A stretch of DNA of 46,012 nucleotides. Source: Deltaproteobacteria bacterium RIFCSPHIGHO2_01_FULL_43_49 (GTDB lineage Bacteria > UBA10199 > SPLOWO2-01-44-7). Shown in pieces: positions 5,501 through 29,483 of this stretch (positions within the stretch are counted from its first letter, which is position 1; every line of letters starts with the position of its first letter). The DNA is taken from NCBI GenBank assembly GCA_001798075.1, contig MGRG01000001.1, positions 1-46,012 of the forward strand, read 5' to 3'. The notes beneath the pieces are model-generated. The model was given only the letters and a program-made list of their open reading frames with translations, did not search any database and was not told where the DNA came from. The position numbers were made by a program, and so were the translations under genes.

Positions 5501-7924
5501 ATGAGCCGTGATATCAAATTTACACCAGAGACTCCCAAAGAATTTAAAGCAGCCATTGAGCAGCTTGTTGAACAAAATGGGGTTTCTCCAGAAAATTTGG
5601 ATGGGGTTTTAGATAAAGAAAAAGATGGCCAGATTTCGAAAGAAGAATTTATCCACTTTGTCTACACCAATCCTGATTGGCAAAAATATCTTCAAGCCAT
5701 TGATAAAGCGGGTTTAAGACACCCACTCGATATTCACAGAATTCCAAAACCCATTCTCGATCGGATCAACCAACTCAAAGAAAAAATCGATTCTGAAATT
5801 AATTTAAAACCTCAAGACCCCGGTTATTGCGATGCCTTCGTCCCCAAATTTTATGAGGCAGGACTTTCTCCTTATGTCGAAGGGGGGTTGGCGTTTAGTT
5901 ATCCTTTTAATTATCGTGGGCTAGAAACAAAAGAAATGACCGCTTCAGAGGCTTACAAGGCTGTTCTGAACCCCAACAGTAGAAAACTTGATTTTGGTTC
6001 TTGTACGGAGGCTACTTATAAAATTGTCTCCGCTTTTTTGGCAGCGGGTGTTCCCTGTGAAGTCAAAGCAATAGCAACACAAAACCATCTTTTTGCCCGT
6101 TATAAAAATGAAGACCTCGATCCCTCTGAATTAGGCAAAATTGGCTGGCAAAAAGTGTTGGATGAAAAAAGATTAGCTACAGGTTTTTATGAGCAAGCCA
6201 GGATGAGTGAAGTTGGCCAACAGGCTAAAAAAAAGCTAGAAGACGTTATTTTAGCGATAGATCCTCAAGACTTTTACAACGATTTGCGCAAACTGACAGA
6301 TGCCATCTGGGATGACAATGAAGCAGCTATTTTTGAAGCATCTCAATCAATCGTTTCAAGGAATCCGCACGATATTGGTCAATTGATTGTGCTTTCCAAG
6401 GCACTTATCTTTGTTGAAGATCCCCAAAAAAGAATAGCCATTTTGGATAAAATACTTTCGGCCTTTCCAGACAATGCCTATATTTTATGGGCGGTTTCTA
6501 TTCATTGTACAGTGCACAAATGTTTGCAATCAGAGGGGGACATACAGAATGTTAACAGTCCTTCAAGTGGCAATGCGGAATATCTCTGGGCCCTTGAGCA
6601 AAAGGATCAAGGAAATCTCAAGAAATATGAAGAGTTGCTTGAAAAGGCATTGGGGAAAAATCCAAACAATGCTTTAGCTTTGCAAGCTAAAGCATCCCTT
6701 CTTTTGGCGCGGGGGGAGATTAGTGATGCAGAAAAGTTAATCCAAAAAGCAATAAAAAGTGCTCCGAACTTGCCCGGAAACTATGGTTTGCTTTCCAACA
6801 TTGCAATGGGACGGGGCGACAACGACAAAGTCTATGAATATGCCAAAAAAGAGCATTTGGTTTTTGTTGGCAATAGGGGTTCAGAAATAACACTTGGATT
6901 TGCGGCATTCAGTGCTCGCAAATATGAAGATGCTTGGGCGATAGGGCGATTTTATACGCGGCAATTTCCGCAAAGTCCGGCTGGTTACTTGCTCCTATCG
7001 ATGGCAGAGCAATCGATGGGATACATAGAGCGGGCCGAAGAATATGCCAAGAAAGCTCTGAAAGTTGCCGTGACTCCGGCTTCGAAAGCACGTGTTTTGG
7101 ATCGTTTGGCGGGGATTAGTGCTTTCAAAGGTGACTTTAAAACAGCAGTTGATTTAGCCAAACAGGCAACAGATCTCGACCCACGGGCCCAAATGTCTTT
7201 TGATTTCTTCGCGACACAACGGTTGATTTTTGAAGGACGTTGGGAAGAAGCCAAGAAAGCTGTTGAAAATCTCAAAAAGAAGTACCCAGAACTTGCCGAT
7301 TTTTATGCAATGGCTGCATCTGTAGAACTTATGACGGGGGAGAGCAAGAAAGCGGAGCAAGATGTTGAGAAAGCTATTCGGCTAAACCCCAACAGCTTGT
7401 TAGCGGTTTTCACTCGGTTACAACTTCATCATGAAAAAGGGGAATGGGAAAAGGCTGCAGCCCTTATCGAAAAAATGAACCAATCTTTTAAGGGAGATTC
7501 CGCCTTGCCAAGTGTGAATGCCTATCATTACCTTGTGATTAAGAAGTACGATTTAGCTAAAAAGGAAGGGGTCAAGGCATTGGGGCTAAATCCTTATGAT
7601 TTTGGAAGCAAAGGTTATTTGGCGCTAGTGGCGGTCGAAGAAAAAGATTTCAAAAAGGCCGAAAAATTGGCAAAAGAGATTGAAAAAATAAATCCGGCTA
7701 ATCCAATGCCTCCGTTCATCCGAGCCAAAATCTATATGGCTCAGAAAAAATTGATTCAGGCTGAAACAGAGGCCAGAAAAGCCATTGAAAAATATCCATA
7801 TGACAATGGATATCTCCCACACTTAAGCTCTTATCATGCTTTGATTACGGCCCTTGAAGCTCAAAGCAAAACCGAAGAGGCTAAGGCAGCCCAAGAAGCC
7901 ATGCTAAAAAATCGCCAGGAGTAA
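5501..7924 (+). CDS. EF-hand / TPR protein, possible transglutaminase-like core
   Basis: An 807-aa soluble-looking protein with good ribosome-binding site AAAGGGA. Residues 38-49 (DKEKDGQISKEE) match a canonical EF-hand calcium loop. Around 160-205 the pattern DFGSCTEATYK ... GVPCEVKAI ... QNHLFARY resembles the Cys-His core of a transglutaminase/papain-like fold; this is a weak match. From about residue 280 to the end there are many tetratricopeptide-type helical pairs (for example LWALEQKDQGNLKKYEELL and repeated A-xxx-A-x-P signatures). No signal peptide is visible. TPR arrays mediate protein-protein contacts; the partner and any enzymatic role are unknown. It stands alone between smc and the transporter gene. 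Confidence 0.75.
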   Translation: MSRDIKFTPETPKEFKAAIEQLVEQNGVSPENLDGVLDKEKDGQISKEEFIHFVYTNPDWQKYLQAIDKAGLRHPLDIHRIPKPILDRINQLKEKIDSEINLKPQDPGYCDAFVPKFYEAGLSPYVEGGLAFSYPFNYRGLETKEMTASEAYKAVLNPNSRKLDFGSCTEATYKIVSAFLAAGVPCEVKAIATQNHLFARYKNEDLDPSELGKIGWQKVLDEKRLATGFYEQARMSEVGQQAKKKLEDVILAIDPQDFYNDLRKLTDAIWDDNEAAIFEASQSIVSRNPHDIGQLIVLSKALIFVEDPQKRIAILDKILSAFPDNAYILWAVSIHCTVHKCLQSEGDIQNVNSPSSGNAEYLWALEQKDQGNLKKYEELLEKALGKNPNNALALQAKASLLLARGEISDAEKLIQKAIKSAPNLPGNYGLLSNIAMGRGDNDKVYEYAKKEHLVFVGNRGSEITLGFAAFSARKYEDAWAIGRFYTRQFPQSPAGYLLLSMAEQSMGYIERAEEYAKKALKVAVTPASKARVLDRLAGISAFKGDFKTAVDLAKQATDLDPRAQMSFDFFATQRLIFEGRWEEAKKAVENLKKKYPELADFYAMAASVELMTGESKKAEQDVEKAIRLNPNSLLAVFTRLQLHHEKGEWEKAAALIEKMNQSFKGDSALPSVNAYHYLVIKKYDLAKKEGVKALGLNPYDFGSKGYLALVAVEEKDFKKAEKLAKEIEKINPANPMPPFIRAKIYMAQKKLIQAETEARKAIEKYPYDNGYLPHLSSYHALITALEAQSKTEEAKAAQEAMLKNRQE

Positions 7925-9635: not shown

Positions 9636-9870
9636 ACTTTTCTTCAGCTTATCCTTCAATGGCGCAGGGCAAGTGGGTGTTCAAAACGGTGCTCCACTTC
9701 AGGCTATCTCGTCAAAAAAATAATTTCGTTTCAAAAGATGCAGATAGTATCTTACCTGCCGTCAGCTCTGTCTGCAGAAACGAATATTATTTTATTTGAC
9801 TCAATACGCCCTCGTTCCCGCACAATGTTTTTCACACCCCCACCTCCTGCCCTCATGCAATTGACACACA
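9636..9870 (+). repeat. stop-codon-proximal palindromic element, copy 2
   Basis: Begins directly after the transporter stop (TAAACTTTTCTTCAGC), then GTGTTCAAAACGGTGCTCC. It ends near CACCTCCTGCCCTCATGCAATTG at about 9840-9863. The interior (about 9680-9840) is nearly identical to the reverse complement of copy 3 at 12770-12945, including GCAGATAGTATCTTACCTGC and GACTCAATACGCCCTCG. No gene inside. The remaining bases to 9928 hold nothing recognisable. Confidence 0.75.
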
Positions 9871-9928
9871 AGCACTCCGCACTGTGAGTTTAAAGTTTGA
9901 GGTTAGTTTTCTGAACAAAAAGCAACGG

Positions 9929-21957: not shown

Positions 21958-22197
21958 ATGTCACAAAAAATGACATGGAAAGAGATGAAAAAAGCATTTC
22001 CAGATGAGTGGTTGTTGATTATCGATTATGAGCGTGATCAATTTGGAAATATCTCATCAGGAATTGTGGAGAGGCATTCGCCTAGTAAAGACGAGGTGTA
22101 CAAACTGCCTGCTGTAAAAAAGCCTGCTGCTTTCGAATATACGGGGGAAAGTACTTTCAGGGGATTTAGGGACCATGCCGAACATCACTGTTTTTGA
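21958..22197 (+). CDS. small hypothetical protein paired with retropepsin-like gene
   Basis: 79 aa with a very good ribosome site (AAAGGAGGACAGT before ATG). The sequence MSQKMTWKEMKKAFPDEWLL and DYERDQFGNISSGIVERHS looks like a compact alpha/beta protein with no membrane segment. Its 3' end overlaps the next gene by 23 bases, so the two are coupled. Function unknown. Confidence 0.75.
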   Translation: MSQKMTWKEMKKAFPDEWLLIIDYERDQFGNISSGIVERHSPSKDEVYKLPAVKKPAAFEYTGESTFRGFRDHAEHHCF

Positions 22198-22570
22198 TCC
22201 CAAAGAACACCACATTCGCCTCGTTGGATCGATGAAAACAGCTGACAGCATCGATTACGAATTTCGCGCCATTCTGGACACGGGTGCTCCATGGTCCGAA
22301 TTTTCTGATCAGTTCCTCCTTGCAGTGGGCATGTTCAACAGTCAAAATCCACCCCCTGCTGTGAGACCAAGCCTCCAAACGCAAAAATATGACAAACTGG
22401 TTTTACCCCAAGTTAAAATCTGTGGGCATGTGATTCCAAAAATGCTGGTTTATATCTCCCATTTTGAAAACCATTGGGGTGTCGATGCTCTCATTGGCCT
22501 CGATTTTTTCCGCCGGTTTCGGGTGACGGTGGATTACAAGCCGGGACATCTGTTAACCGATCCGTTATAA
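22175..22570 (+). CDS. retropepsin-like aspartic protease domain protein
   Basis: 131 aa. It carries the aspartic-protease signature AILDTGAPWSEFSD with Asp35-Thr-Gly-Ala. A C-terminal ALIGLDFFRRFRVTVDY segment matches the I-I-G-x-D-x-L region of small clan AA (retropepsin-fold) proteins, which act as dimers with one Asp from each chain. There is no signal peptide, so it is presumably cytoplasmic. It overlaps the 79-aa gene upstream; the pair probably forms one functional unit, with the small protein a possible partner or substrate (inference). No retroelement gag/pol sequence is nearby. Confidence 0.75.
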   Translation: MPNITVFDPKEHHIRLVGSMKTADSIDYEFRAILDTGAPWSEFSDQFLLAVGMFNSQNPPPAVRPSLQTQKYDKLVLPQVKICGHVIPKMLVYISHFENHWGVDALIGLDFFRRFRVTVDYKPGHLLTDPL

Positions 22571-22653: not shown

Positions 22654-23511
22654 ATGTCATTGGTCATGGGAGCTCAGTTAGCAGCCGAGATACAGACTGG
22701 ATTGCATGCCATCGAAGCCGGTTTGTTATCTGTTCCAGGCGGTACCTTTACGATGGGAGCAGAAGATCTAGGTATTCCTGAAAGAGAGGTAACAGTCGAT
22801 TCTTTTAAAATGGGCAAATACACTGTGACCAATGAGGAATATGATAGCTGGGTAAAAAGCCTTGGGGCCGAAAGATTTTTTCTTTTGAGATATGATTCCA
22901 AAACGGATTCACCCTCCATTGTTGCCAGGGCCTCCAGCAAAGAAGAAGTATTTGGCAGTGGTGTCTTTCAAATAATTGCAGGGGAGCTAATCCAAAAAGG
23001 GGGATTGGACTTTGCTTTGCAAATCGTTGAGATTGAAGACCACCATTCACCAGAAAATTTTGATCGCCCAAATCAACCAGGAGTGAGTGTCAGTTGGTAT
23101 GACTCTATTACTTATGCGTTAATGCATGGAGCCAGATTGGCTACTGAGGAAGAGTGGGAATATGCAGCGACAGAGGGCGGAAAGAAGAAATATGCCACTC
23201 CCTCTGGAAAATTAACTAACGAAGAAGTTCACTTTAATCAAGATATTGAGAAAGGTACAACCATTGATGTAGATGATCCAAGATACCCCGATGGGCCATT
23301 TGGGATTAGACATCTTACTGGCAACGTATGGGAATGGACAGGTAGTTCTTGGGCGCCAGGTAGCCCTCTTAAAGTTTTGCGCGGCGGTTCCTGGAACGAC
23401 GATATTCTGGACGACTTGCGCGCGGCCTGTCGCAGCTACGGCCGCCCCGAGGTTAGCGACGGCTATTTCGGGTTTCGGTTGGTTGTGCGTCGCCAGGACT
23501 CCAGTAAGTAA
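22654..23511 (+). CDS. FGE/SUMF1-fold protein with DGR-type variable C-terminus
   Basis: 285 aa from ATG at 22654, with AGGAGG-like ribosome site; an in-frame TTG lies one codon upstream. The formylglycine-generating-enzyme fold is seen in VPGGTFTMGAEDLGIPEREV, KYTVTNEEYDSWV, ARLATEEEWEYAA and GNVWEWTGSSW, ending in LRGGSWNDD ... RAACRSYGRPE ... GYFGFRLVVRR. Many such proteins are not sulfatase activators but display scaffolds whose C-terminal loops are diversified by DGRs. The last part is distinctly GC-rich relative to the rest of the gene. No export signal is obvious. A paralogue lies at 27497. Confidence 0.85.
   Translation: MSLVMGAQLAAEIQTGLHAIEAGLLSVPGGTFTMGAEDLGIPEREVTVDSFKMGKYTVTNEEYDSWVKSLGAERFFLLRYDSKTDSPSIVARASSKEEVFGSGVFQIIAGELIQKGGLDFALQIVEIEDHHSPENFDRPNQPGVSVSWYDSITYALMHGARLATEEEWEYAATEGGKKKYATPSGKLTNEEVHFNQDIEKGTTIDVDDPRYPDGPFGIRHLTGNVWEWTGSSWAPGSPLKVLRGGSWNDDILDDLRAACRSYGRPEVSDGYFGFRLVVRRQDSSK
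23380..23502 (+). other. candidate DGR variable region 1
   Basis: From CGCGGCGGTTCCTGGAAC to CGCCAGGACTCC. By my count about 65% G+C over 120 bases, well above the preceding coding sequence. The encoded pattern is fixed scaffold residues (RGGSW, LRAA, GFRL) separated by irregular residues (NDDILDD, C, SY, SDGYF), as expected when a template rich in AAC codons is copied with adenine mutagenesis. No template copy was found in the window. Confidence 0.65.
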
Positions 23512-26002: not shown

Positions 26003-26754
26003 ATTTCAATCTCTGGGCCATTTTCTAAAATGAGCTGACCCCCTGTTTTTAAGAATTTGGGGGCATCCTGCCTGATCCTTCTGACAAAATCAAGGCCGTC
26101 TGAGCCTCCATCGAGCGCTAGCTTTGGCTCAAATTGTGTAATTTCGGGTTCTAATTTTTGAATCGCCTGGGTTGGAATATAGGGGGGGTTAGAAACAATC
26201 AGATCAAATTGACCCTTCACATTTTCAAACAGATCACTTTTTATAAATTGGATACGGCCATTCGCAAATGCTAAATTTTGTCTGGCGACTTCAAGTGCAT
26301 CCTCCGAAATATCTGTGACAACAATTTTTGCGTTGGGTATTTCCTTTGCGAGTGCTGCCGCAATACAACCACTTCCAGTGCATAAATCCAAGATTTCAGG
26401 TCCATGGTCCTTAATCCATAGTCCTTGGTCCAATATTTTTAGCGCTTTCTCCACCACCTCTTCTGTTTCAGGCCTCGGAATTAACACTGCAGGTGTAACC
26501 TTTATCTTGATCGACCAAAATTCTTTGTAGCCGACAATGTAAGCCACCGGCTCCCTCTTCAAACGACGCTCTATGTAGCTTTTAAACACTTCTAATTTAC
26601 CGCCTGGTACCAGGTACCTGGTGGTAGCCGTATAAATCTCATGTCGCTCGCAGCCCAAAACATAAGCGAGTAAAACTTCTGCATCAAGCCGGGGAGTTTC
26701 ACAGCCCACGTCATAAAGTTGTTGTTCGGCTTTCTCAAGAAGCTCTCGGATCAT
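25990..26754 (-). CDS. prmC: release factor glutamine methyltransferase PrmC (short C-terminus)
   Basis: About 254 aa from ATG at 26754 (MIRELLEKAEQQLYDVGCET); upstream in-frame codons read through vapC in another frame and are unlikely to be used. Helical N-domain, then the SAM site LDLCTGSGCIAAALAKEIPN and the glutamine-binding IVSNPPYIPTQAI. It methylates the GGQ glutamine of RF1/RF2 and is encoded near the prfA gene it serves. The C-terminus stops at [14 protein letters not shown], where other PrmC proteins continue about 30 residues beyond an EIG motif; the coding sequence runs straight into murA. It overlaps vapC by 20 bases. Confidence 0.9.
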   Translation of the reverse strand: MIRELLEKAEQQLYDVGCETPRLDAEVLLAYVLGCERHEIYTATTRYLVPGGKLEVFKSYIERRLKREPVAYIVGYKEFWSIKIKVTPAVLIPRPETEEVVEKALKILDQGLWIKDHGPEILDLCTGSGCIAAALAKEIPNAKIVVTDISEDALEVARQNLAFANGRIQFIKSDLFENVKGQFDLIVSNPPYIPTQAIQKLEPEITQFEPKLALDGGSDGLDFVRRIRQDAPKFLKTGGQLILENGPEIEIWKN

Positions 26755-27121
26755 AAAGTTGAGCAATATTTTTTTCAGAAAGTTTTTTAAATATTTTGTC
26801 GAAACTATAAATAGGTGCATTGATGAGGATGGATTCGCCAACCAGAAGCAAATCAACTATACCCGCTGTGAGCCCCGTTCCCTTTATTTTCTGAAGCGTT
26901 TTTTCAACTTGTTCAAAGAGTCTTTCGTGGTGGGGAATTGATATTAACCCTCCAAGAACATATTCCATTTTGTGCAATTCCTCTTTCCTGACTCCTTGCA
27001 AGAGCTCCAGGCGAACGTAGGCAGACAACATAATTTTGTTTTCCATAAGAAGTTCTTTGAAACCAGGTGTGCTCCGGCCACGGAAGAAATCAACAAAAAC
27101 AGATGTATCGACGAGGACCAT
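26735..27121 (-). CDS. vapC: PIN-domain toxin, VapC type
   Basis: 128 aa. PIN-domain acidic residues are present in order: VLVDTSVFVDFFRG (Asp5), SAYVRLELLQGV, GLTAGIVDLLLVGE and YSFDKIFKKL. VapC toxins are Mg-dependent RNases that cut tRNA or rRNA when not bound by antitoxin. The start shares one base with the antitoxin stop (TGATG), the usual coupled arrangement. Its 3' end overlaps prmC, so the toxin pair is fused into an essential-gene operon. Confidence 0.9.
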   Translation of the reverse strand: MVLVDTSVFVDFFRGRSTPGFKELLMENKIMLSAYVRLELLQGVRKEELHKMEYVLGGLISIPHHERLFEQVEKTLQKIKGTGLTAGIVDLLLVGESILINAPIYSFDKIFKKLSEKNIAQLYDPRAS

Positions 27122-27327
27122 CAGACTTTACGCCGTTCACGGGTTTTGCGTGTGTCCAAACGGATGCGAATTTTTCCTTGAAGGAACAGAAGTGCCTCCC
27201 TTTTTTTTCTGGCAATGAGTTCTTTAAGTCCTTCGACAAGGGTTTGCGTTTGGTTCAAACCTGTCAGACGAACGGCTTCTTGTAAAAGCTCGTGAGGAAG
27301 ATTGGTAGCAATTTTTCGAACACTCAT
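27121..27327 (-). CDS. vapB: VapB-type antitoxin
   Basis: 68 aa. The N-terminal ribbon-helix-helix pattern (KIATNLPHELLQEAVRLTGL, then QTQTLVEGLKELIAR) predicts a DNA-binding dimer. The basic tail (RIRLDTRKTRERRKV) would wrap the VapC active site. Such antitoxins repress their own promoter in complex with the toxin. It is the first gene of the vapBC-prmC-murA run, so its autoregulation may reach the downstream genes. Confidence 0.85.
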   Translation of the reverse strand: MSVRKIATNLPHELLQEAVRLTGLNQTQTLVEGLKELIARKKREALLFLQGKIRIRLDTRKTRERRKV

Positions 27328-27440
27328 ATGGATAATCTATTGTAAATGATCTATATTGTCAATTATTATTTTCCATATCAAAATTTTGTTTTTCTGCAAG
27401 CAACATTTTTAGAGGATTGACGATAACCATCATGAGTAAT

Positions 27441-27466
27441 GTCATTGCGAGCGTAGCGAAGCAATC
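27441..27466. repeat. short palindromic intergenic repeat
   Basis: GTCATTGCGAGCGTAGCGAA with GCAATC: ATTGC and GCAAT pair across a GAGCG/CGAAG stem. This GTCATTGCGAGC-type sequence is a widespread intergenic repeat in bacterial genomes. It lies between vapB and the second FGE-fold gene. Confidence 0.6.
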
Positions 27467-27496: not shown

Positions 27497-28390
27497 ATGG
27501 GGGCATTATTGGGAACACAGGCAACAGCGGGTTTAAATGCTGCTGAGATTGGACTTGCATGGGGTCAAACCATTGTCGCCGGCACCTATGAAGTCGGTGC
27601 CCCTGATTTGGAGAACAATCCCGTTCGTAATGAAACCATAGATAGGGCCTATGCATTGGCCGACACACCAACCACGAATGCTCAATTTGCCGCCGGCTTG
27701 CGACAGCTTGAAGGCCGCACAACGGTTTTGATGACCACTCTTCCAAAGAATCGTTGGGCTATTTTGGCAAGGGGGACAGAAGAAGAGATAAGAGAAATTG
27801 ATATGAAGAGGTTGACAGAGATTGTTGTCTCACTTGTTCCTCAACAGCCCTCTTTTATCAAAGTAGGTGATTATTTTGCATCTGGTGCGCTGCGAGCATT
27901 TGATTTGGGTGAAGCGCCGATGATAAGAATTGTACCGGTGACATTGGAAGCCCATTTTCCAGAAGGATTTGATCGCCCCAATCAACCGGCATTGACCAGT
28001 CCTTTTGAGTCTTCTGCTTTTGCAGCCCTTTTTGGTTTGGAATTGCCGACAGGGGTAGAGTGGGAGGTAGCCGCCGCAGATCTGAGAGATGAAAGATATA
28101 GAAATGAAAAGAACTTGCGAAGAGTCGCGCATTTTCATCCAACAAGAGCCACGGCAGATGTAAAGACAAAGGAGCCGAATGAATTAGGTTATTTTGACAT
28201 GCTAGGTAATACTTGGGAGGCAATGGCCAATCCTTATATAGAAGGTGAAGAGAATAGAGAATTTCGCGGCGGTTGCTGGTTCAATCGTCCAGAGCGTGTG
28301 CGTGCTGCGATTCGCTACGGCAGCCATCCGGACGGCTGGGACAACGACAGGGGCTTCCGGTTGTTGCGTTTCCAGGACTCCCCGGGCTAA
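27497..28390 (+). CDS. FGE/SUMF1-fold protein 2 with DGR-type variable C-terminus
   Basis: 297 aa, ribosome site AAGGAG before the ATG. It is a divergent paralogue of the protein at 22654: both open with an Ala-rich stretch (TAGLNAAEIGLAWGQ here), share FDRPNQPA/FDRPNQPG in the middle, an E-EWE/VEWE motif (LPTGVEWEVAAADL) and a C-terminal block FRGGCWFNRPERVRAAIRYG ending GFRLLRFQDS. The N-terminal half has lost many FGE consensus residues. The end is a candidate DGR variable region. No reverse transcriptase gene is adjacent. Confidence 0.8.
   Translation: MGALLGTQATAGLNAAEIGLAWGQTIVAGTYEVGAPDLENNPVRNETIDRAYALADTPTTNAQFAAGLRQLEGRTTVLMTTLPKNRWAILARGTEEEIREIDMKRLTEIVVSLVPQQPSFIKVGDYFASGALRAFDLGEAPMIRIVPVTLEAHFPEGFDRPNQPALTSPFESSAFAALFGLELPTGVEWEVAAADLRDERYRNEKNLRRVAHFHPTRATADVKTKEPNELGYFDMLGNTWEAMANPYIEGEENREFRGGCWFNRPERVRAAIRYGSHPDGWDNDRGFRLLRFQDSPG
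28265..28381 (+). other. candidate DGR variable region 2
   Basis: From CGCGGCGGTTGCTGG to TTCCAGGACTCC. It shares its first ten bases and the final CCAGGACTCC, and the scaffold RGG-W, VRAA-R and GFRL, with candidate region 1, but differs through the middle by substitutions and a one-codon shift. That fits a related but separate template, or an older diversified copy. Confidence 0.55.
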
Positions 28391-28412
28391 TGTAGGTTTT
28401 AATCTTTCCCCT

Positions 28413-29483
28413 TTATCCTTTATCGGATTTTAGGGCTTCGGTTTGAAAATGGGTTCTCAAAGGAGGGATGACCTCTTCCAAATGACCATCCATGATTTTG
28501 TCGAGTTGATAAAGGGTTAATCCAATGCGATGATCGGTCAGACGATTTTGGGGGAAATTATAGGTCCGAATTTTTTCACTCCGGTCTCCGGAGCCGACCA
28601 TCCCTTTTCTGGTTTTGGCCATTACGGCTTGTTGTTCTTGCAACATTTTATCGTACAATCTTACTTTCAAGACTTTCATCGCTCTCGCTTTGTTTTTGTG
28701 TTGCGAACGGTCATCCTGGCAGGTGACGACAAGGTTCGTTGGGATGTGAGTGATGCGTACTGCTGATTGTGTTTTGTTGACATGCTGCCCGCCAGGTCCG
28801 CCGGCGGAATAGGTATCAATCCTCAAATCCTTTTCGTCTATTTGGACTTCCACTTCGTCCGGTTCTGGCAACACAGCCACTGTCACCGCCGAAGTATGAA
28901 CACGCCCTTGCTGTTCTGTTTCGGGAACCCTTTGAACGCGGTGGATTCCACTTTCATATTTCAAGTCACTATAAACCATCTTGCCGTTCACCTGCACGAT
29001 GATTTCTTTGAGACCACCGATACCTGTAGAACTCGAATCAACAATTTCTATCTTCCAACCCAGCGATTCGGCATATTTCGAATACATCCGAAACAAATCG
29101 GAGGCAAAGAGGGCCGCTTCGTCTCCACCGGTTCCCGCTCGGATTTCCAAAAAGACGTTTTTGTCGTCATGGGGGTCTTTGGGAAGTAGCAGAATTTTTA
29201 GTTTTTCCTCCAGTGTTTTGAGATTTGTTTCCAATTCTGGCAATTCTTCTTTGGCCATTTGTTGAATCTCGGCGTCTTTTTCGTGAGCGACCAGCTCTTT
29301 ATTTTGGTGAATATGTTTTTGGATGGATTGATACTGACGATAAGTTTTCACGGGTTCTACCAGATCAGAACTTTCTTTTGAGAGTTTTTGAAACAAAAGG
29401 TTATCCGCAATGACCTTTGGATCGGAAAGCTTCTCATTCAGTTCATTGTATCGTTTTACAAGTTGTTCTAGTCTGTTGAACAT
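28413..29483 (-). CDS. prfA: peptide chain release factor 1
   Basis: 356 aa. GGQ motif in YSAGGPGGQHVNKTQSAVR. The stop-codon-reading tripeptide in HRVQRVPETEQQGRVHTSA is PET, of the PxT type that marks RF1 (UAA/UAG) rather than the SPF of RF2. An N-terminal coiled coil (1-100) is present. It releases the finished peptide on the ribosome, and its GGQ glutamine is the substrate of PrmC encoded nearby. Confidence 0.96.
   Translation of the reverse strand: MFNRLEQLVKRYNELNEKLSDPKVIADNLLFQKLSKESSDLVEPVKTYRQYQSIQKHIHQNKELVAHEKDAEIQQMAKEELPELETNLKTLEEKLKILLLPKDPHDDKNVFLEIRAGTGGDEAALFASDLFRMYSKYAESLGWKIEIVDSSSTGIGGLKEIIVQVNGKMVYSDLKYESGIHRVQRVPETEQQGRVHTSAVTVAVLPEPDEVEVQIDEKDLRIDTYSAGGPGGQHVNKTQSAVRITHIPTNLVVTCQDDRSQHKNKARAMKVLKVRLYDKMLQEQQAVMAKTRKGMVGSGDRSEKIRTYNFPQNRLTDHRIGLTLYQLDKIMDGHLEEVIPPLRTHFQTEALKSDKG

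What the first reader, a model, noticed from the sequence alone, without database searches (positions are those of the whole stretch)
28265..28381. Second candidate DGR variable region, 5 kb away, in a divergent paralogue
A second FGE-fold gene ends in a related block: same first ten bases CGCGGCGGTT, same CCAGGACTCC end, RGG-W, VRAA-R and GFRL scaffold, but a different middle. Two targets on the same strand separated by housekeeping operons suggest a dispersed target family served in trans by one RT with one or more templates.
Basis: partly seen in the sequence, partly recalled or inferred. Interest (0 to 1): 0.7.

Follow-up and report, generated by a model that had tools for sequence, protein, structure and literature searches.

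The report
Orphaned hypermutation target next to prfA
The end of this gene is a genuine "variable region" of the kind bacteria scramble with a dedicated mutagenic reverse transcriptase, but the reverse transcriptase and its template are absent from this genome; in sister genomes that still have them, the reverse transcriptase is interrupted by a short tandem repeat that looks like an on/off switch.

Summary
In detail: 28265-28381 is a DGR-type variable region (VR2) at the 3' end of an FGE-sulfatase-family gene, with CGCGGCGGTT at its start and a VR-type IMH (CAGGACTCC) at its end. The interpretation (dispersed targets served in trans by one RT) is not supported. The window's own genome (2.23 Mb, 15 contigs, 98% complete) has no detectable RT, Avd or template RNA. 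VR1 and VR2 differ in length (114 vs 108 nt to the IMH) and in non-adenine positions, so two templates would be needed. Relatives in the same phylum carry intact cis cassettes (target-VR-hairpin-avd-RT-TR), with 99 of 99 TR/VR mismatches at template adenines in six pairs. VR2 and three same-family orthologues vary mainly at the predicted adenine positions (0.62 vs 0.27, P=5e-5), and all four lack the machinery. VR2 is therefore an orphaned DGR target, cut off just after the VR, against prfA. Two of the orthologues carry VR-TR fusion scars. The surprise is in the relatives: the DGR RT contains a tetranucleotide (once octanucleotide) tract immediately before GIPIGNLTSQ, mostly off-frame, absent from about 150 other RT loci. 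This suggests a phase-variable hypermutator. Repeat-number polymorphism has not been shown.

The parts
28265..28372 (+). VR2, variable region (peptide RGGCWFNRPERVRAAIRYGSHPDGWDNDRGFRLLRF)
   Evidence: 12/12 predicted AAY codon sites end in C/T (46% in rest of gene); differences from three orthologues concentrated at predicted adenine positions (0.62 vs 0.27, P=5e-5); GC 64% vs 47%
28373..28381 (+). IMH, VR-type (CAGGACTCC)
   Evidence: Six intact cassettes in relatives have CAGGACT in the VR and CAGCACT in the TR at the same offset
27497..28390 (+). FGE-sulfatase-family target gene P2 (297 aa), VR2 at its 3' end
   Evidence: PF03781 E=2e-24; orthologues in G003 60%, G002:C42 57%, G001 56% identity
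28397..28424 (+). Pyrimidine-rich tract downstream of the VR, remnant of the cassette flank; stops where intact cassettes have a hairpin and overlaps the 3' end of prfA
   Evidence: Comparison of post-IMH flanks of 11 VRs
28413..29483 (-). prfA (release factor 1), abutting neighbour; leaves no room for avd-RT-TR
   Evidence: PF03462 and PF00472
23380..23493 (+). VR1, the first variable region, in a divergent paralogue
   Evidence: Same scaffold, IMH at +114; 12/12 predicted AAY sites end in C/T
23494..23502 (+). IMH of VR1 (CAGGACTCC)
22654..23511 (+). FGE-sulfatase-family target gene P1 (285 aa)
   Evidence: PF03781 E=7e-38; 40-43% identical to the cassette targets of G005 and G002
22175..22570 (+). 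Pepsin/retropepsin-like gene upstream of P1; the same gene precedes the complete DGR cassette of G005
   Evidence: 56% identical over 131 aa to L044 3248-2856; weak PF13975

Best explanation
VR2 is the variable region of a former DGR target. It was written by mutagenic retrohoming (adenines of a template randomised, the mutated copy pasted over the VR up to the IMH), and the gene later lost its cis machinery. In intact relatives the order is target-VR-IMH, pyrimidine tract, hairpin, avd, RT, TR, conserved RNA. Here the sequence stops after the pyrimidine tract and prfA begins, so the variant is now fixed. SHOWN: VR architecture, IMH type, adenine-biased divergence from orthologues, absence of RT/Avd/TR/hairpin in this assembly, the complete cassette in same-family genomes. 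INFERRED: past mutagenesis of this very locus, loss by deletion, present inactivity.
For: Complete cassettes in relatives: six TR/VR pairs with 99 of 99 mismatches at template A, including same-family G005 and G002. IMH/IMH* difference CAGGACT/CAGCACT; the window VRs carry the VR type. VR2 against three orthologous VRs: 0.62 differences at predicted A positions, 0.27 elsewhere, 0.09 at other first codon positions, P=5e-5. No RVT_1, no hit to a DGR-RT profile, no Avd, no TR-flank RNA, no DNA relative of either VR. Contig ends searched: nothing. Hairpin present after nearly all relatives' VRs, absent after VR1 and VR2. All four same-family P2 orthologues lack RT next to them; the three whose neighbours were read sit at different loci.
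Against: No template for VR2 itself was found anywhere, so adenine specificity rests on site prediction from relatives' templates plus comparison of diverged orthologues. The placement of one codon gap used knowledge of VR2. The assembly has 15 contigs, many ending in shared repeats, and is 98% complete, so an RT-TR fragment in a gap or an unbinned plasmid is not excluded. One codon (TGC where orthologues have Ser) implies a non-adenine change or a different template base.
Confidence: 0.82

Rival explanations
1. Active remote targets: an RT and one or more templates exist in the cell (in an assembly gap, on a plasmid, or in part of the population) and still diversify VR1 and VR2 in trans.
For: Both ORFs and the VR scaffolds are intact. 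Contig ends run into shared repeats. Trans-served and structurally variable DGR loci are reported in Thiohalocapsa PB-PSB1 (PMC10907252).
Against: No RT, Avd or TR RNA in a 98% complete genome. Two distinct templates would be needed. In G002, G005 and G026 resident TRs do not explain the orphan VRs. The hairpin after the VR is missing.
Confidence: 0.13
2. Ordinary FGE-family C-terminus: the similarity is the conserved SUMF1-like core and there was never a DGR at these loci.
For: RGG-W and GFRL are conserved in FGE-family proteins generally (own knowledge), so the peptide scaffold alone proves nothing.
Against: DNA-level identity of VR start and IMH, GC islands, C/T third bases at all 12 predicted sites, excess divergence at predicted A positions (P=5e-5), same-family orthologues with VR-TR fusion scars. 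The third FGE gene of this genome lacks the signature (L236).
Confidence: 0.04
3. One template explains both VR1 and VR2 by adenine-only changes.
For: Shared first ten bases and IMH.
Against: Different lengths to the IMH (114 vs 108 nt). Constant codons differ at third positions (CGC GCG GCC vs CGT GCT GCG); the relatives' templates do not have A at these positions as a rule.
Confidence: 0.01

Closest known systems
Diversity-generating retroelements with FGE/C-type-lectin-fold targets (e.g. TaqVP of Thermus aquaticus, PMC6328139; TvpA of Treponema denticola, from own knowledge)
   Same: FGE-family target with C-terminal VR, AAY-rich templates, IMH/IMH* difference, Avd, RT with GIPIGNLTSQ and YMDD motifs (in relatives)
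   Different: Here VR and target only: no RT, Avd, TR or hairpin. In the relatives the RT carries a tetranucleotide tract
Degenerate and remote DGR loci of Thiohalocapsa PB-PSB1 (PMC10907252)
   Same: Targets left without their RT/TR; dispersed DGR loci within one genome
   Different: There some orphans match a TR elsewhere and loss is by transposons/MITEs. Here no TR matches, and losses look like truncation after the VR or VR-TR recombination
Tetranucleotide-repeat contingency loci (phase variation, e.g. phase-variable mod methyltransferases of Haemophilus, PMC6828955; the repeat mechanism from own knowledge)
   Same: In-ORF tetranucleotide tract whose copy number sets the frame (in the relatives' RT)
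   Different: The gene is a mutagenic reverse transcriptase, not a surface or modification enzyme; copy-number variation not yet shown

Membership tests
Diversity-generating retroelement (complete, active) | DGR-type reverse transcriptase | tested here: not met
   No RVT_1 or DGR-RT profile hit in this genome; present in 9 of 46 genomes of the phylum
Diversity-generating retroelement (complete, active) | Template repeat matching the VR except at adenines | tested here: not met
   No second copy by BLAST or degenerate pattern and no TR-flank RNA
Diversity-generating retroelement (complete, active) | Accessory protein Avd | tested here: not met
   No hit in G000
DGR target gene with variable region | Variation directed at template-adenine positions | tested here: met
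   Against three orthologous VRs: 0.62 vs 0.27, P=5e-5; sites predicted from relatives' templates, own template missing
DGR target gene with variable region | IMH at VR end distinct from IMH* at TR end | tested here: met
   CAGGACT in VR1/VR2; relatives CAGGACT (VR) vs CAGCACT (TR)
DGR target gene with variable region | C-type-lectin/FGE fold with VR near the C-terminus | tested here: met
   PF03781 over residues 26-291 of 297. Structure prediction failed (pLDDT 39), so by sequence family only
DGR target gene with variable region | Hairpin downstream of the IMH | tested here: not met
   Present after most relatives' VRs, absent after VR1 and VR2
Dispersed targets served in trans | A TR in the genome matching the remote VR at all non-adenine positions | tested here: not met
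   None in G000; in G002, G005, G026 resident TRs need 23-35 non-A changes
Phase-variable gene (relatives' RT) | Repeat unit not a multiple of 3 inside the ORF, frame set by copy number | tested here: met
   CAGC, TCAC, CATC, CAAT, CAGA or CATCACTC tracts; off-frame in G005, G026, G041 (two), G016, G019, on-frame in G027
Phase-variable gene (relatives' RT) | Copy-number variation within a population | not testable with these tools
   One genome per species; the only hint is that the G002 assembly is broken exactly at the tract

The most novel reading that the evidence does not exclude
In this phylum the DGR is gated by phase variation. A slipped-strand tetranucleotide tract immediately before RT motif GIPIGNLTSQ switches the hypermutator on and off, so receptor diversification comes in bursts, and useful variants are then locked by losing the cassette (VR-TR recombination or truncation after the VR). 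The window's two genes would be such locked variants.
Probability: 0.5. Interest if true: 0.85.

Novelty: new variant of a known kind. Interest (0 to 1): 0.6.

Why it matters
It also exposes a lineage where the mutator itself seems to be under a contingency switch, which would explain how a cell avoids permanent self-mutation and would make the regulation of DGRs testable by counting repeats in long reads. In the searches made here of an open-access paper library I found no report of a repeat tract in a DGR RT; subscription papers were not covered.

Tried and rejected
Single shared template for VR1 and VR2: rejected by length and constant codons. Template elsewhere in this genome: BLAST, gapped patterns, RNA model and contig-end search all negative; two weak DNA matches (C7, C12) only share CCAGGACTCC. 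First genome-contig scan with P2 alone found nothing. AlphaFold model of P2 was too poor to use, so no fold search was run. Rfam has no family for the TR-flank RNA. Programmed ribosomal frameshifting over the RT tract was considered: the units differ in sequence with no evident common slippery site, so less likely than slippage, but not excluded. Chance tracts: rejected, because in 1.33 Mb of fetched loci every tetranucleotide run of 4 or more copies lies at this RT site, and 80 viral RT loci (0.54 Mb) have none.

Full report
OBSERVATION. Window 28265-28381 is the 3' end of a 297-codon gene (27497-28390). CGCGGCGGTT occurs twice in the window, 0.05 expected. Both host genes belong to PF03781, are about 30% identical, and both end in CCAGGACTCC. 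The block has 64% GC against 47% in the rest of the gene.

IS IT A DGR VARIABLE REGION? The window is contig C1 of a 2.23 Mb, 15-contig, 98% complete genome. That genome has no RVT_1, no match to a DGR-RT profile built from relatives, no Avd, no copy of the VR and no TR-flank RNA (a 7-sequence covariance model). Relatives of the same phylum supplied the missing system. Same-family G005 has, in one row, an aspartyl-protease-like gene, FGE target with VR, avd, RT and TR; the same protease gene precedes VR1's host in the window (56% identity). Six TR/VR pairs show 16/16, 16/16, 21/21, 15/15, 17/17 and 14/14 mismatches at template adenines. A seventh (G016) contains an apparent indel near its end and was left out. 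VRs end in CAGGACT, TRs in CAGCACT, at the same offset within each of the six pairs; both window VRs have the VR form.

TESTING VR2 WITHOUT ITS TEMPLATE. Adenine sites were predicted from relatives' templates. All 12 predicted AAY codons of VR2 end in C or T (46% in the rest of the gene; chance about 1e-4). Orthologues of the VR2 gene exist in three same-family genomes: G003:C46 60%, G002:C42 57%, G001:C74 56%. Across the four VRs pairwise differences are 0.62 at predicted A positions and 0.27 elsewhere (0.09 at other first codon positions); permutation P=5e-5. Caveat: the gap placement that maps sites onto VR2 was made with VR2 in view.

ONE TEMPLATE OR TWO? VR1 has its IMH at +114, VR2 at +108, and constant codons differ at third bases, so one template cannot explain both. 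In relatives with both an RT cassette and other, orphan targets (G002, G005, G026), the resident TR needs 23-35 non-adenine changes to give the orphan VR, against 0 for its own. So there is no sign of service in trans, unlike some loci of Thiohalocapsa PB-PSB1 (PMC10907252).

HOW WAS THE CASSETTE LOST? In most intact cassettes the IMH is followed by a pyrimidine tract and, 33-60 nt on, a hairpin, then avd. VR2 keeps the pyrimidine tract (28397-28424), which already overlaps the end of prfA (28413-29483), and has no hairpin. VR1 also has none. The orthologues sit at unrelated places: before glpK in G001, inside a nuo operon in G003 (gene names read from the translated neighbours, not searched). 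In G003:C46 and G002:C42 the VR runs straight into TR-type sequence (CAGCACTCCCTAA..., in G002 with the whole TR-flank RNA); G025:C10 looks alike. Inference: recombination between VR and TR deleted everything between them. The window's loci were lost another way, since they keep the VR-type IMH.

THE RT TRACT IN RELATIVES. In DGR RTs outside this phylum the stretch between motif YFPSID and G(I/L)PIGNLTSQ has a near-constant length (mostly 171-180 nt) and is open. In this phylum its second half is replaced by a tandem tract: CAGC x10 (G005), CAGC x9 (G026), TCAC x8 and CAAT x12 (two loci of G041), CATC x8 (G019), CATCACTC x4.6 (G016), CAGA x4 (G027). Frames of the two halves disagree in G005, G026, both G041 loci and G016 and in G019, and agree in G027. 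One in seven on-phase fits random phase (expected one third). Members lacking a tract are G044, G020 (frameshifted) and a second, N-terminally deleted copy in G019. The G002 assembly is broken exactly at its CAGC tract. Every tetranucleotide run of 4 or more copies in 1.33 Mb of fetched loci lies at this site; 80 viral RT loci have none. Slipped-strand phase variation of the RT is the simplest reading. Repeat-number polymorphism was not observed and pseudogenisation of some copies is possible.

VERDICT. VR2 is a real but orphaned DGR variable region; trans service is unsupported. As a window feature alone it would be a new member of a known kind (a degenerate DGR target); the label 'new variant' and the interest score reflect the RT tract and the VR-TR scars in its relatives, which are the more surprising result and deserve their own study.

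Noticed in passing
L044 (G005) 803-842, L048 (G026) 5756-5791, L046 1565-1596, L051 5086-5133, L049 5645-5676, L210 3118-3133, L045: Tetranucleotide (once octanucleotide) tracts inside the DGR RT just before GIPIGNLTSQ, mostly off-frame; unit sequence differs between lineages
   Followed up: partly
L203 (G002:C42), L216 (G003:C46), L201 about 9670-9900 (G025:C10): Target genes whose VR is fused directly to TR-type IMH* and TR-flank sequence, apparently scars of VR-TR recombination
   Followed up: partly
L044 40-175, L048 5019-5148, L051 4356-4484 (minus strands): Conserved RNA of about 130 nt following the TR (GGGAGTCCAGAT...ACCCTGGT...ACCGAAGA), also found without an RT in G025 and G001; no Rfam family
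   Followed up: partly
window 22175-22570: Pepsin/retropepsin-like gene paired with the FGE target both here and in the complete G005 cassette
   Followed up: partly
window 27441-27466: GTCATTGCGAGCGTAGCGAAGCAATC, a REP-like element just upstream of the VR2 gene; core also present on the G002:C42 contig
   Followed up: partly
window 26735-27330: PIN-domain gene with a likely partner just upstream on the same strand (toxin-antitoxin-like) next to the VR2 gene
   Followed up: no
L236 (G000:C2 25217-26248): Third FGE-family gene of this genome, with a degenerate RGNGG start and no IMH
   Followed up: no
L139, L141, L101 and others: Heptanucleotide repeats in cyanobacterial and Chloroflexi DGR neighbourhoods
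   Followed up: no
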